DNA of 64,000 bases from Corynebacterium timonense (GTDB lineage Bacteria > Actinomycetota > Actinomycetes > Mycobacteriales > Mycobacteriaceae), in contig NZ_LT629765.1 in assembly GCF_900105305.1 (NCBI RefSeq), positions 62,001-126,000 on the forward strand. The letters are read 5' to 3'. A model generated the notes under the pieces. The model was given only the letters and a program-made list of their open reading frames with translations, searched no databases and was not told the origin of the DNA. The position numbers and the translations under genes were made by a program. Numbering within the stretch: position 1 is the stretch's first letter; each line of letters begins with the position of its first letter. Of this stretch, positions 8,844-47,733 are shown piece by piece.

Positions 8844-9488
8844 ATGGGGCCGCGTCTTCGCGGCGGCGTCCTCCACGGGCCGGGGCGGCAGTCCGGCCTC
8901 GCCGAGGCGCTGCAGCGCACCGGGCACGCCATGACGAGCGTCACTGCGTTTCACGCGGGCGCGCCCTTCGACTTGGTCATCCTCGACGCGCAGGACCCCG
9001 AGTGGGTGCGCGCGCAGGCGGAGGAGCTTGCGCCGCGCGCCCGGCAGCGGCAGATGTTCCTGCACACCTGCCTCATCGAGGGCGTTCAGGCCTTCGATCC
9101 CGTGGAGCTGCGCGGGGCGGTGACGATGGCGGCCCACGAGATCCAGCCCGGCTATTGGGTTACCTCCGCCGCCGACGACGTCGGCGAGGCCGTCGTGTCG
9201 TTGCTCGTGGCGCAGGCGGGCGGGGTGAACGTGCCGATTACCGACGCGCAGCGCCCGAGGCTTGCGGCGGCGGCTCGGCTGGGGCGGCTTGGGGACGTCG
9301 CAAAGCGAGATGCCCTCGAGCTCATACGCGAAGAGTTGCCCGGCATCGCGGCGACGGTGGAGGAGCCGGAGGCCATCGCGCCCGCGCGCCAGGAGCAGTT
9401 GCGCGCCGCGCTCGGTGGGCACCCGGCCGGGGACCTGTACGAGCAGCTGGAGCGACGAGTTACGGAGAGGAACAGCACCGATGTTTGA
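8844..9488 (+). CDS. Rossmann-like/DUF2520-like protein (Rv3603c position), divergent
   Basis: The 214-residue protein sits between the DUF6779 gene and the panC-like gene, exactly where mycobacteria have Rv3603c, a Rossmann/DUF2520 protein. The pieces 'DLVILDAQDP', 'QMFLHTCLIEGV' and 'VSLLVAQAGG' follow the order of that family, but the N-terminal GxGxxG nucleotide loop is not recognisable. It may have lost cofactor binding. Its start abuts the previous stop, and its end overlaps the panC-like ATG by eight bases, so all are likely co-translated. Family assignment rests on synteny plus weak motif resemblance. Confidence 0.55.
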   Translation: MGPRLRGGVLHGPGRQSGLAEALQRTGHAMTSVTAFHAGAPFDLVILDAQDPEWVRAQAEELAPRARQRQMFLHTCLIEGVQAFDPVELRGAVTMAAHEIQPGYWVTSAADDVGEAVVSLLVAQAGGVNVPITDAQRPRLAAAARLGRLGDVAKRDALELIREELPGIAATVEEPEAIAPARQEQLRAALGGHPAGDLYEQLERRVTERNSTDV

Positions 9489-10269
9489 GCCCGGGACAGC
9501 CGTCGAGGTCACCGATCCCGCGAGCCTGGCCACGTACGGGCGTGCGTTTCGCAAGGTGGGCAAGTCCGTCGTGCTCGTCCCGCTCGGGGCGGGCCTGCAC
9601 GCGGGGCACATCCAGCTCATCCGCGCGGCGCGCTCTCTGCTCGGCTCGGTCGTCATGGTCACCTACACCGGTGAGGACAGCCCGGAGGTCTTCGCGCGCG
9701 AGCAGGTCGACGTGGTCTACCGTGGCCGCCTCGACGCCGACGCATGCGTATCGACGCCCCTCCACCACCTTGAAGACCCCACCGCCATCGCCCGCGGCGT
9801 GGCGCGCATCCTGGCGGCCGCCCACGCCTGCCACGCCACCGACGTGGTGCTCGGCGAAAAGGACTTCGAGTTGCTCGTCGCCGTCCAGCGGGCCGTGAGC
9901 GCGCTGCGCATGGAGGTCCGGCTGCACAGCGTGCCCACCGTGCGTACCGCGGACGGCGTGGCGATGTCGCTGCGCAACGCCGACGTGCCGGAACAGTATC
10001 GCGAGCCCGCCCTGGCGCTGCCCGCCGCCCTGACCGCCGGGGCGCACGTCGCTGAGCGTGGTGCCACGGCCGTTCTGGAGGCGGCGCGTTCCGTCCTCGA
10101 CGCGGCCGGCGTCGAGCCCGCCTACCTGGAACTGCGCAGCCTGTCCTTCGGCCCTGCGCCCGAGGAGGGCGACGCACGCCTCCTCGGTGCGGTCGACCTC
10201 GGCGGCGTCCACCTCACCGACAACGTCGGCGTGCCCGTGGGCATCGGGTTCACGAACCTGCCGGTGTAG
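9481..10269 (+). CDS. panC: Pantoate-beta-alanine ligase homologue, active site degenerate
   Basis: The 262-residue protein aligns by eye with M. tuberculosis PanC along most of its length: 'LHAGHIQLIRAA' for the HIGH-like site, 'LGEKDFELL', 'VPTVRTADGVAMSLRN', 'ALALPAALTAG' and 'YLELRS'. The nucleotide-binding His pair and the K-D of GEKD are kept. However, the FVNPxQF segment carrying one pantoate-binding Gln is replaced by 'VTYTGEDSPEVF', and the second pantoate Gln (GEKDxQQ) is Leu. About 25 residues of the middle region are also missing. It may be a catalytically altered or inactive paralogue. The ATG at 9481 overlaps the previous gene; the frame open upstream is a shadow. Confidence 0.7.
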   Translation: MFEPGTAVEVTDPASLATYGRAFRKVGKSVVLVPLGAGLHAGHIQLIRAARSLLGSVVMVTYTGEDSPEVFAREQVDVVYRGRLDADACVSTPLHHLEDPTAIARGVARILAAAHACHATDVVLGEKDFELLVAVQRAVSALRMEVRLHSVPTVRTADGVAMSLRNADVPEQYREPALALPAALTAGAHVAERGATAVLEAARSVLDAAGVEPAYLELRSLSFGPAPEEGDARLLGAVDLGGVHLTDNVGVPVGIGFTNLPV

Positions 10270-10310
10270 GCGCTGCGCGTGCCTGGGGGGCTCGGTGGCA
10301 ATGGTGTGTG

Positions 10311-10814
10311 GTGGGGTCGACTGAGGCTGGGGTCTCCTGGTCGACCTCAGCGAGATCCAGGCGGTAAAACCCCAGGTCGCGTTGAGGCGGAATGTGTTGA
10401 GGTCGACTAGCTGGGGTGTTGTGGTCGACCTCAGCGAGATCCAGGCGGTAAAACCCCAGGTCGCGTTGTGGTGAAATGTGTTGAGGTCGACTAGCTGGGG
10501 TGTTGTGGTCGACCTCAGCGAAATTCAGGCAGTGAAAGCCCAGGTCGCGTCACGCTGAAATATGTTGAGGTCGACTAGCTGGGGTGTTGTGGTCGACCTC
10601 AGCGAGATCCAGGCGGTAAAACCCCAGTTCGCGTTGGGGCGAAATGTGTTGAGGTCGACTAGCCGGGGCGCCTTGGTCGACCTCAGCGAGATCCAGGCGG
10701 TAAAACCCCAGGTCGCGTTGAGGCGGAATGTGTTGAGGTCGACTAGCCGGGGCGCCCTGGTCGACCTCAGCGAAATCTAGGCTGTAAAACCCCAGTTCGC
10801 GCCACGCTGAAATG
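10311..10814. repeat. Six tandem 84-bp units with internal dyads
   Basis: Units start at 10311, 10395, 10479, 10563, 10647 and 10731, with an exact 84-bp period and a few substitutions per unit. Each unit contains TGAGGTCGAC, a 16-base spacer and GTCGACCTCA, so a 10-bp perfect inverted repeat (in the second unit 10398-10407 and 10424-10433); only the first unit has imperfect arms. Two GTCGAC sites per unit give twelve in about 500 bp. The spacer holds CTGGGGT, which is complementary to ACCCCAG further along the same unit, allowing a second overlapping pairing. Units 3 and 6 share the ending CACGCTGAAAT; units 5 and 6 share a CCGGGGCGCC spacer. There are no unique spacers, so it is not CRISPR. 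Confidence 0.95.
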
Positions 10815-11030
10815 TGTCAGGGCGCCCCCGCAACCCGCGAACACACTCGGTACACGGGAAAGAGATGGTCTGTTTTTCACAGGGCCCCACCCTTTCGGGG
10901 TGCACGTCACTCTACGTCGGCGCGCAGCGCGCACGGGCTAGCGCGGAAGAATGCGCTCTGAACAGCACAAACGCGCAGAAGCGCCCCGTGCGAACTGCTC
11001 CTACTCTCGTCGGGGCGCGCACGCGAGACA
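10815..11030. other. Intergenic stretch between repeat array and nptA, no gene recognised
   Basis: This stretch contains a weak hairpin CACCC-TTTCG-GGGTG near 10887 and otherwise no recognisable gene, RNA or known site. Short open frames here have no ribosome-binding sites and read like noise. Confidence 0.5.
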
Positions 11031-11047
11031 GTTAAACAGGTGTTCAT
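11031..11047 (+). promoter_or_regulatory. Candidate PhoR-type direct repeat upstream of nptA
   Basis: GTTAAA at 11031 and GTTCAT at 11042 form a direct repeat with an 11-bp period, about 80-95 bp before the nptA start. OmpR/PhoB-class regulators bind direct repeats spaced by one helical turn. A clearer pair, GTTCAG/GTTCAG with the same period, lies before phoR at 47827. The link between them is an inference. Confidence 0.35.
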
Positions 11048-11127
11048 CTTTTGTTGCTTGCCTGTCAAGATCGTGGAATTACGCTGACATGAGCCCAATG
11101 TTTACCCCCGTATGTAAGTGAGCGCTT

Positions 11128-12444
11128 ATGAGTAGCAAGGGACGTCCCTCTGATCCCGCCGGCGAGCACGAGCTCCTGGAGGATTCTGGCACGCGTGTCG
11201 TGTCCCGGTCTGCGACGGAAACGATGACCGCCGACGCCGAGAACATCGGTAGCGATGTTGAAGAGGAAGCGGAAGGCAAAGACCCGCTCGGCTTCCTCGG
11301 CCTCGACGGCACCGCGAAGCAGGTAGCGAACTGGATCGCCGTTGTGCTCGGCATCTGGATCCTGCTCAACGGTGTCGGAATGATCGGTGACGGCTTCAAG
11401 CTCGCCGTCGGCGACCAGGCGCAGGAGCTGTTCTCCTTCGCGGAGAACCCCTTCGTCGGCCTGGCTATCGGTATTGTCACCACGGCAATTATCCAGTCGT
11501 CGTCGTCGACCACCGCCATCGTGGTGGGCATGGTCGCCGGCGGCCTGCCGCTGACCATCGCTATCCCGATGCTCTTCGGCGCCAACATGGGCACGTCGGT
11601 GACGTCGACCCTCGTGGCCCTGGGCCTGGCCGGCAACAAGAAGCAGTTCAAGAACGGTTTCTCCATGGCGACCGTGCACGACTTCTTCAACATTATCGCC
11701 ATCCTGGTCTTCTTCCCCCTCGAGCTGCTAACCGGCTTCCTCGGCAAGACCGCGACGGCGATCGCGCCCTCGCTGGCGGGCCAGGGCGACAGCATCTTCT
11801 CGCGCGCCTTCGAGGCCCTCGGCGACTTCATCGACCTGATCACCGAGCCGCTCGTCGGCCTCGCAACGAGCATGGTTGACCCGCTTGACGACGTCTGGGC
11901 TGGCGTCATCCTCGCCGTCCTCGGTATCGCTCTGATCCTGCTGTCCATCAGCTTCATCGGCAAGATCCTCAACGCGCTGCTGGTGGGCAAGGCGCAGGAC
12001 ATCCTCTACGCAGCGCTGGGCCGCAACTCCTTCATCGGCGTTCTCTCCGGCGCTCTGATCACCGCGCTGGTGCAGTCCTCTTCCACCACGACGGCTCTGA
12101 CGGTTCCGCTGGCTGCGTCCGGCAAGTTTTCGGTGCGCACGCTGTTCCCGTTCGTGGTGGGCGCCAACATCGGTACCACGGTGACCGGCCTCATCGCCGC
12201 GTTCTCCGCGTCGGGCGCGGAGGCGGATGCCGCAATGGCCGGTGCCTTGGTGCACACGCTGTTCAACCTCTTCGCGGCGATCCTCATCCTGGGCCTGCCG
12301 TTCCTGCGCGACATCCCGCCGCGCTGCTCGGACTGGCTGGCTGGCCTGGCGGAGAAGAACAAGCTGTACGTCTTTATCTATGTTGGCGGTGTGTTCTTCG
12401 CCATCCCGCTGCTGGCCGTGTTTATTTCCAACGCCGTGATGTAA
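11128..12444 (+). CDS. nptA: Na+/phosphate cotransporter family protein
   Basis: The 438-residue membrane protein carries the duplicated Na/Pi-II signature: 'QSSSSTTAIVVGMVAGG' in the first half and 'QSSSTTTALTVPLAASG' in the second. An N-terminal acidic region of about 60 residues precedes about eight hydrophobic segments. The family couples sodium entry to inorganic phosphate uptake. The ATG follows TAAGTGAG. Two genes on the same strand follow closely, ending in a PstS-like lipoprotein, so this looks like a phosphate-acquisition cassette. There is no PhoU domain at the C-terminus. The symbol is assigned by family, not by orthology testing. Confidence 0.88.
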   Translation: MSSKGRPSDPAGEHELLEDSGTRVVSRSATETMTADAENIGSDVEEEAEGKDPLGFLGLDGTAKQVANWIAVVLGIWILLNGVGMIGDGFKLAVGDQAQELFSFAENPFVGLAIGIVTTAIIQSSSSTTAIVVGMVAGGLPLTIAIPMLFGANMGTSVTSTLVALGLAGNKKQFKNGFSMATVHDFFNIIAILVFFPLELLTGFLGKTATAIAPSLAGQGDSIFSRAFEALGDFIDLITEPLVGLATSMVDPLDDVWAGVILAVLGIALILLSISFIGKILNALLVGKAQDILYAALGRNSFIGVLSGALITALVQSSSTTTALTVPLAASGKFSVRTLFPFVVGANIGTTVTGLIAAFSASGAEADAAMAGALVHTLFNLFAAILILGLPFLRDIPPRCSDWLAGLAEKNKLYVFIYVGGVFFAIPLLAVFISNAVM

Positions 12445-17358: not shown

Positions 17359-17889
17359 GTGAGCAGCATCTACCCTAGCCCTAGCTACGACGAATACGAC
17401 GAAGACGGACTGCCTCTCAAGAAACCGCGCTTTCACGGTGGTCACGCCCCACGTCAGTCGTGGACCGCGCACCCGCAGCAGCAGCCGCCGTCGTCGACGA
17501 GTGGGTACCCGGCAACGTATTCACAGGCGCCATATTCTCAGTCGCCGTATTCCCAGGCGCCGTATTCCCAGTCGCCGTATTCCCAGGCGCCGTACGCCCC
17601 GGCACCGTATCCTCAGGTTGCCTACCAGCCCGCTCCGAAGAGCAAGGTCGTGGCAGCATTGTTGTTCTTCTTCTTCGGTTCGTTTGGCTTGGGCAACTTC
17701 TACCTCCACCAGAACACGCGCGGCGCTGCCAAGCTGATCATGGTGTTCGTGGGCTTTATTACGGCGATTTTCCTCGTCGGTTTCCTCCTCTTGGCGGCGG
17801 TCAGCATGTGGTCCTTCATCGAGATGATTCTCGTCCTCGTCGGCGCGGGCGGATACGACCGCGACGGCAGGGGAGTCCCAGTGGACTAA
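17359..17889 (+). CDS. TM2-domain membrane protein with PYSQ repeats
   Basis: The 176-residue protein has two parts. Residues about 1-92 are Tyr/Pro/Gln/Ser-rich and contain seven 5-residue repeats of the Y-S-Q-A/S-P type. From about residue 95 comes a TM2 domain: 'KSKVVAALLFFFFGSFGLGNFYLHQNTRGAAKLIM', then a second helix and a final polar segment. TM2 domains form a helical hairpin; the family function is unknown. The start is GTG with AGGAGG 9 bases upstream. Standing alone after lysS, it is followed by a strong terminator. Confidence 0.85.
   Translation: MSSIYPSPSYDEYDEDGLPLKKPRFHGGHAPRQSWTAHPQQQPPSSTSGYPATYSQAPYSQSPYSQAPYSQSPYSQAPYAPAPYPQVAYQPAPKSKVVAALLFFFFGSFGLGNFYLHQNTRGAAKLIMVFVGFITAIFLVGFLLLAAVSMWSFIEMILVLVGAGGYDRDGRGVPVD
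17518..17622 (+). repeat. Seven 15-bp in-frame tandem repeats
   Basis: Units of the form TATTCCCAGGCGCCG and TATTCCCAGTCGCCG alternate from 17518 onward; the last two are diverged. They encode the Y-S-Q-A-P / Y-S-Q-S-P repeats of the TM2 protein. Copy number could vary between strains by slippage. Confidence 0.85.
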
Positions 17890-45520: not shown

Positions 45521-45922
45521 CTACTTTTCGCCGGCGGTCTTTGTGGCGGTCTTTTTCTTCGTGGCCTTCTTCGCGGTGGCCTTCTTCGCGGTGGATTTCT
45601 TGGTGGTGGTCTTCTTCTTCGTCGCCTTCTTCTTGGCGGCCTTCTTTGTGGCCTTCTTCTTCGTCGCCTTCTTTGTGGCGGTCTTCTTCGCGGTGGTGCT
45701 CGTGGCAGAGGCGTCCTCTTCCGCCAAGGCCTCCTGTTCCTCGGCGTACTTGCTGTAGACAAAGCCCTTGGGCTCCACGCCGAGCATGGACATCAAGGTG
45801 ACGCCGTCGAAGAAGTCCTCAGCGTAGGTGGCCACGATCCGCCGCGCGCCGGAGGCGGTCTGCTCCTCGACCGTGTGGGCAGCGTCGGGAGCGGGGCGGG
45901 AATCGGTGATCTTGGGTGGCAC
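45521..45922 (-). CDS. Protein with histone-like lysine-rich tail
   Basis: The 133-residue protein has a soluble N-terminal part (about 1-65, 'RRIVATYAEDFFDGVTLMSMLGVEPKGFVYSKYAEE'). From about residue 75 to the end it consists almost only of K, A and T in A-K-K-A-T-K-K type repeats. This resembles the tails of actinobacterial HU (HupB) and histone H1, so nucleic-acid or polyphosphate binding is likely. The head is not an HU domain. The GTG start has AAGGAG 8 bases upstream. It lies between thrE and otsA, all on the minus strand. Confidence 0.78.
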   Translation of the reverse strand: MPPKITDSRPAPDAAHTVEEQTASGARRIVATYAEDFFDGVTLMSMLGVEPKGFVYSKYAEEQEALAEEDASATSTTAKKTATKKATKKKATKKAAKKKATKKKTTTKKSTAKKATAKKATKKKTATKTAGEK

Positions 45923-47657: not shown

Positions 47658-47733
47658 GCTGGAGTGGCGCAATCGGTAGCGCAACGCACTTGTAATGCGT
47701 AGGTTGCGAGTTCAAGTCTCGTCTCCAGCTCCA
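47658..47733 (+). tRNA. tRNA-Thr (anticodon TGT), CCA encoded
   Basis: A complete cloverleaf can be drawn: acceptor GCTGGAG/CTCCAGC, D stem GCGC/GCGC with loop AATCGGTA, anticodon stem ACGCA/TGCGT with loop CTTGTAA (anticodon TGT, reading ACA), five-base variable loop, T arm GCGAG/CTCGT with loop TTCAAGT, discriminator T and encoded CCA. A run of six T follows at once and may end transcription. TACACT at 47642 is a candidate -10. Confidence 0.95.

What the first reader, a model, noticed from the sequence alone, without database searches (positions are those of the whole stretch)
10311..10814. Array of six 84-bp tandem units, each with a 10-bp dyad and two GTCGAC sites
The period is exactly 84 bp in every copy, which equals eight turns of B-DNA, so all dyads face the same side of the helix. 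Five of the units keep TGAGGTCGAC and GTCGACCTCA while other positions vary, as if the dyad is under selection. The spacer CTGGGGT can also pair with ACCCCAG downstream in the same unit, giving alternative folds or a pseudoknot if transcribed. There are no unique spacers. This could be an iteron-like array for a DNA-binding protein, a chromosome-organisation or silencing element, a recombination target, or an RNA with repeated domains.
Basis: partly seen in the sequence, partly recalled or inferred. Interest (0 to 1): 0.8.

Follow-up and report, generated by a model that had tools for sequence, protein, structure and literature searches.

The report
Tandem intergenic repeats in Corynebacterium
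A run of six 84-base DNA repeats turns out to be one of at least seventeen such arrays in the same bacterial genome, built from a small module whose short core recurs across the genus while its mirror-image arms differ between species; it looks like a new family of spreading, probably dispensable DNA repeats rather than a single regulatory site.

Summary
The array at 10311-10814 is one of 17 tandem arrays of one family in this 2.63 Mb genome; a sister species (G203) has the family at 12 loci. The unit is not the GTCGAC dyad but a 68-bp arm-core-arm module (95 of 108 modules here, 39 of 43 in G203 are exactly 68 bp), GTCGACCTCA-48 bp-TGAGGTCGAC, with an inner core CCCCAGGTCGC after an A/T run. 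Linkers of 4, 15-16 or 36 bp give periods of 72, 83-84 or 104. The core is over-represented in other genomes of the genus, where it often lies singly between inverted arms of unrelated sequence; no such excess was seen elsewhere in the order. At four loci shared by both species the arms are of the local species' type. Between gatD and recR the array fills a gap that is 25 bp or less in nine relatives. Helical phasing, CRISPR, REP/RAYT and intrinsic terminators are not supported. Best reading: a non-autonomous, mobile-like intergenic repeat, amplified in tandem, its arms replaced in concert. Mobility, partner enzyme and any function are inferred.

The parts
10311..10814 (+). whole array: degenerate left edge, five complete modules, one incomplete module (motif orientation same as panC-like gene)
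10340..10407 (+). module 1, 68 bp (GTCGACCTCA ... TGAGGTCGAC), core CCCCAGGTCGC intact
10408..10423 (+).
10424..10491 (+). module 2, 68 bp, core intact
10508..10575 (+). module 3, 68 bp, core as GCCCAGGTCGC
10592..10659 (+). module 4, 68 bp, core altered to CCCCAGTTCGC
10676..10743 (+). module 5, 68 bp, core intact
10760..10814 (+). module 6, incomplete: right-hand arm missing, core altered to CCCCAGTTCGC
10367..10380 (+). AAACCCCAGGTCGC, first copy of the conserved core (others at 10451-10464, 10535-10548, 10703-10716)
9481..10269 (+). flanking gene, pantoate-beta-alanine ligase family (PF02569), stop codon 41 bases before the array; start codon chosen by me
11128..12444 (+). flanking gene, Na+/Pi cotransporter family (PF02690)

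Best explanation
The array is one locus of a genus-wide family of small intergenic DNA modules, each with two inverted arms around a conserved core (CCCCAGGTCGC after an A/T run). I think the modules are non-autonomous, mobile-like repeats: they settle in gaps between genes where they do little harm, and in this species and its sister they have multiplied in place into tandem arrays by unequal recombination or slippage. The core would be read by something conserved in the genus and the arms by something that changes quickly, so that arms are replaced in step across a genome. Shown: dispersal over 17 loci, constant 68-bp module, genus-wide core with different arms, empty or short gaps in relatives, species-specific arms at shared loci. 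Inferred: that the modules move, what moves them, how arrays grow, and that the array does nothing essential for panC or the transporter gene.
For: 17 arrays in one genome. Module length 68 bp in 95 of 108 modules (G000) and 39 of 43 (G203) whatever the linker. Core excess over the reversed-pattern control: 70 v 0 here, 24 v 4 in G203, and by my count of the listing 15 of 242 genomes with 15 or more matches and at least three times the control. In a mixed set of loci 32 of 95 core occurrences lie inside inverted arms of score 10 or more, against 26 of 500 random positions in the same loci; an earlier, smaller test gave arms of 11 or more in 12 of 46 v 4 of 400. gatD-recR gap: 676 bp here, 155 in G203, -4 to 25 in the nine next-best matches. 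panC-transporter gap: array in G000 and G203; the other 12 relatives looked at lack the transporter gene and show no core in the 420 bases after panC. Third arm base A in 118 of 124 left arms here, in 3 of 33 in G203 arrays B01-B10. At the M20-peptidase locus both species have an array but in opposite orientation to the gene.
Against: No target-site duplication, no autonomous copy and no partner enzyme was found; only one genome per species could be seen, so no insertion or copy-number change has been watched. A MITE normally keeps its ends and lets its inside drift; here the inside is the conserved part. Raw core counts overstate the family: many matches lie in what look like coding regions without arms (all 5 fetched from G206 and all 6 extra ones from G203; several). 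Two of 12 G203 loci (B11, B12) carry arms of the G000 type; I suspected recent exchange because flanks there reach 95-96% identity, but flanks 570 bp from A10/B05 also reach 94% while B05 has G203-type arms, so this is unsettled. Conservation of arms over many arrays would also fit a bound protein.
Confidence: 0.5

Rival explanations
1. Protein-binding arrays: the arms are half-sites of a DNA-binding protein and the core a second site, so that arrays at many loci organise the nucleoid, silence or insulate genes.
For: Arms and core are conserved across the consensus of 11 arrays with 80-90 bp units while positions between vary; arms vary as independent half-sites rather than as base pairs; arms of one species type recur at unrelated loci.
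Against: No constant spacing on the helix between arrays; 11 of 17 G000 arrays have no counterpart among the 12 G203 loci found; most related species have the core only singly or not at all; orientation and module type differ at the same locus in two sister species. No candidate protein.
Confidence: 0.22
2. RNA-level element: arrays are transcribed from the gene before them as structured 3' ends that stop transcription or protect messages, perhaps with Rho.
For: By open-reading-frame reading, 13 of 17 arrays start within about 80 bases of the stop codon of a gene on the same strand, and 8 of 15 classifiable gaps are convergent. The window array folds better than shuffles on both strands, z -5.6 and -5.2.
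Against: Good folding on both strands is expected of any inverted repeat. No hairpin plus T-run was found at 10200-11200 and T runs are nearly absent on the sense strand of all 17 arrays. Arms do not covary within a species; one of two arm families of another species shows a compensated change, the other mostly does not. Module order hardly affects fold energy (mean z -0.78 over 18 arrays). Orientation to the flanking gene is reversed at some loci. Enrichment of convergent gaps is weak (P 0.017 against an assumed 25%, 0.088 against 33%).
Confidence: 0.18
3. Plain neutral minisatellites: a chance inverted repeat was duplicated and spread by recombination, with no machinery reading arms or core.
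For: Copy number and linker differ from array to array; arrays lie in gaps where they disturb little.
Against: A common core with unrelated arms in other species, and arms of one type over the whole genome, are not expected of independent neutral duplications.
Confidence: 0.1

Closest known systems
REP / BIME repeats with RAYT transposases (GTAG- and CGTC-tagged palindromes; PMC3733652, passages seen)
   Same: short palindromic repeats outside genes, often downstream of coding regions, species-specific stems, sometimes clustered in tandem
   Different: REPs are 20-40 bp with a GTAG or CGTC tag, stems of 5-13 bp and loops of 2-20; here modules are 68 bp with 48 bp between 10-bp arms and an inner core, and no RAYT-type (Y1_Tnp) gene is detected in this genome or G203
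[quoted passage not shown] recalled, review PMC10969869 seen only as a search listing)
   Same: small, intergenic, inverted terminal arms, many copies, no gene
   Different: conserved part is the inside, not the ends; no target-site duplication or parent transposase found
Mycobacterial interspersed repetitive units / bacterial VNTR loci (recalled)
   Same: tandem units of roughly 50-100 bp at many intergenic loci of an actinobacterium
   Different: here units are inverted-arm modules with a core that recurs genus-wide; strain variation untested
Plasmid iterons, CRISPR arrays (recalled)
   Same: regular tandem spacing
   Different: no replication gene beside the array, no unique spacers

Membership tests
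REP/RAYT repeats | 20-40 bp palindrome with GTAG or CGTC tag, loop 2-20 bases | tested here: not met
   Module of 68 bp, 48 bases between arms; definition from passages of PMC3733652. Some left arms do contain CGTC (TGACGTCGAC), inside the arm and not as an unpaired tag.
REP/RAYT repeats | RAYT (Y1_Tnp, PF01797) gene in the genome | tested here: not met
   PF01797 found in 5 of 242 genomes of the genus, not in G000 or G203, nor in any of the 15 core-rich genomes.
MITE | terminal inverted repeats | tested here: met
   10-bp arms on each module here; arms of up to 25 bp in other species.
MITE | presence/absence of insertion at orthologous sites | tested here: met
   gatD-recR: 676 and 155 bp v -4 to 25 bp; between species only.
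MITE | target-site duplication | tested here: inconclusive
   None recognised by eye at the gatD-recR gap; sites too diverged for a firm test.
MITE | parent transposon with the same ends | not tested
   No exhaustive search was made; two short ORF surveys between neighbouring cores gave nothing.
CRISPR array | unique spacers between identical repeats | tested here: not met
   All parts of the unit are repeated.
Intrinsic terminator | G+C-rich hairpin followed by a T run | tested here: not met
   0 found in 10200-11200, shuffles mean 0.8.
Known Rfam RNA family | covariance-model match at gathering score | tested here: not met
   Window: only a tRNA at 47658-47730. Eight loci at E up to 1: tRNAs, an SRP RNA and three matches below gathering score, none over a core.
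Coding repeat | open frame kept through the array | tested here: not met
   Periods 83, 71 and 104 are not multiples of three.
MIRU/VNTR-type minisatellite | copy number differs between strains | not testable with these tools
   One genome per species; between species copy number differs at shared loci.

The most novel reading that the evidence does not exclude
A new class of bacterial repeat in which the inside is fixed and the palindromic arms are exchangeable: one genus-wide core, recognised by a conserved factor, carried by modules whose arms are set by a fast-changing, species-specific factor and are replaced in place over the whole chromosome, much as hotspot motifs or self/non-self tags turn over.
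Probability: 0.25. Interest if true: 0.8.

Novelty: new variant of a known kind. Interest (0 to 1): 0.55.

Why it matters
Families of palindromic repeats shape bacterial chromosomes, but known ones are recognised by their ends. A family whose ends change from species to species around a constant core, with arrays at the same loci in sister species carrying different ends, would give a tractable case of genome-wide concerted turnover and point to an unknown trans-acting pair of recognition events. It also supplies ready tandem-repeat typing loci. If it proves to be a neutral satellite, it is still an unannotated repeat family that covers about 10 kb of this genome.

Tried and rejected
Helical phasing: rejected by the other periods. 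RNA stem kept by covariation: not supported in G000 or G203 (one search scanned both strands and so counts each junction about twice, one search replaces it); small sample in G222 mixed. Whole-array fold explaining the composition gradient: unit-order permutations had little effect. Origin-proximal clustering: dropped, since the first 3 kb of the contig do not show dnaA by my reading and the origin is unknown. Plasmid or phage origin: no match in plasmids or phages with array A14, none for a G202 element, only a 30-33 bp piece outside the core for a G222 element, none in viral contigs for arm-core-arm. Other species in a public genome collection: three single, apparently chance matches to core plus arm; that collection may leave out this genome and near ones. 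HNH-type gene as autonomous partner: it sits in the same gatD-recR gap in some relatives but has no core near it. RAYT partner: absent. In print: searches (search listings; passages of PMC3733652 and PMC2267715) showed no description of this family; the library holds only open-licence papers. PMC2267715 lists stem-loop families for Corynebacterium diphtheriae among 40 genomes; I did not see their sequences.

Rows and units dropped: modules without both arms in regular form are not; one search's 72-bp class is double-counted and is not used; and one search used part of the fetched loci (L009-L013 and L099-L172, 95 occurrences); unit-order test used 18 of 29 arrays (at least four whole units, at most 960 bases).

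Full report
What is there. The six 84-bp units at 10311-10814 are real and exact in period. They lie between a pantoate-ligase-family gene and a Na+/Pi-cotransporter-family gene on the same strand.

Not one array but a family. The same DNA finds 30 matching places in the genome. Reading 19 stretches around them gives 17 tandem arrays with roughly 2 to 12 units each (about 120 units by Tandem Repeats Finder) and isolated or decayed copies at three more places (near 251.5, 1153.9 and 2113.4 kb). The 11-mer GGTCGACCTCA occurs 139 times in the genome against 4 for the reversed control. Among 242 genomes of the genus only G203 stands out for it clearly (34 against 5; the next, G019, has 23 against 7). 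G203 has the family at 12 loci, of which Tandem Repeats Finder reports a tandem at 10.

The module. Counted on one strand, 108 modules in this genome run from GTCGAC[C/G]NCA to TGN[C/G]GTCGAC; 95 are 68 bp and 8 are 67. In G203 39 of 43 are 68 bp. The distance between modules is 4 bp (42 cases), 15 (15) or 16 (50) here, and 4 (19), 15 (9) or about 36-40 (16) in G203. Across the consensus sequences of the 11 arrays with 80-90 bp units, the arms and AAAACCCCAGGTCGC are the conserved parts; one arm was used as seed, the other arm and the core were not.

The core across the genus. CCCCAGGTCGC is found 70 times here against 0 for the control, and by my count of the listing 15 of 242 genomes have at least 15 matches and at least three times the control; one more (G094, 17 against 9) fails that ratio. 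In loci from G069, G148, G183 and G029, first seen as weak matches to the array, the core lies inside inverted arms of other sequence. Forty regions from six genomes show further arm types, for example AGTGCCAAAGGACGCAA and GCACCAAATTCC in G222, CGATCGAGCCGTT in G148, GTGTGCATCTTGG-like in G202; a fair share of the fetched matches are in apparent coding sequence with no arms. Tandem pairs with other arms occur too (L107, L169, L170). The arm test: 32 of 95 against 26 of 500. In 397 genomes drawn from the order, of which 10 are listed as the same genus, a 14-base version of the core gives 59 matches here and at most a handful in any listed genome outside the genus, near control level.

Evolution at shared loci. 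BLAST of flanks pairs six of the 17 arrays with G203 arrays: A03/B09 (this window), A13/B01, A02/B10, A10/B05, A16/B12, A17/B11; an isolated copy near 1153.9 kb lies in the region that matches the B07 locus. Third arm base A: 118 of 124 here; 3 of 33 in B01-B10; 19 of 20 in B11-B12. Thus at A03/B09, A13/B01, A10/B05 and A02/B10 the arms differ while position and core motif persist. At A02/B10 the orientation relative to the peptidase gene differs. B11 and B12 are exceptions; recent exchange is possible but the flank identities do not settle it. Relatives: the gatD-recR gap is -4 to 25 bp in the nine best matches after G203, and also short in three more; two others have about 200 bp, eight have 0.7-1.25 kb with another gene, and in six recR was not in the fetched piece.

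Position. By open reading frames with coding-type composition, 13 of 17 arrays begin within about 80 bases of a stop codon on the same strand; 8 of 15 classifiable gaps are convergent, 4 tandem in the same direction, 2 tandem in the opposite direction and 1 divergent; A15 and A17 were left out. Most of these gene calls were not checked by homology; ten flanking proteins were. The excess of convergent gaps is weak and rests on an assumed background.

RNA or DNA. The window array folds well on both strands (z -5.6, -5.2), as inverted repeats must. Arms do not covary inside this species: 47 of 108 modules are mismatched at the two variable positions, with one fully swapped module. No terminator-like site at the locus. 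I therefore favour DNA-level recognition. G+T content falls from the first to the last third in 27 of 29 arrays; this is unexplained and may reflect transcription from the flanking genes.

Mechanism. Shown: dispersal, constant module, genus-wide core with exchangeable arms, gaps without array in relatives, species-typical arms at shared loci. Inferred: a trans-acting activity that inserts or copies modules, growth of arrays by recombination, and concerted replacement of arms. No enzyme was found; Y1-type transposases are absent here and in G203.

Against my reading. The conserved inside is odd for a MITE; no target duplication, no parent element; no strain data; raw core counts are inflated by coding matches; sequence recognition by a resident protein would explain much of the same data.

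Noticed in passing
L073-L102 (gatD-recR gap): The gap between convergent gatD and recR is an insertion hot spot in the genus: arrays in G000 and G203, core elements in G050, G222, G193 and G022, and a reading frame with an HNH domain in G215, with similar frames by eye in several others.
   Followed up: partly
L016-L034 and L060-L069, array interiors: G+T content falls from the first to the last third of the array, relative to core orientation, in 27 of 29 arrays.
   Followed up: partly
L027:4716-5951 and L034:4887-5366: Transposase-type genes lie close to the ends of arrays A11 (Mutator family, PF00872) and A17 (helix-turn-helix domains of transposase type).
   Followed up: partly
window 11128-12444: The cotransporter gene beside the panC-like gene is there only in G000 and G203 of the 14 genomes compared.
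   Followed up: no
window 17511-17617: A 15-bp tandem repeat inside an open reading frame gives a Gln/Pro/Tyr-rich stretch.
   Followed up: no
window 45538-45696: A degenerate 15/42-bp tandem repeat, score 150.
   Followed up: no
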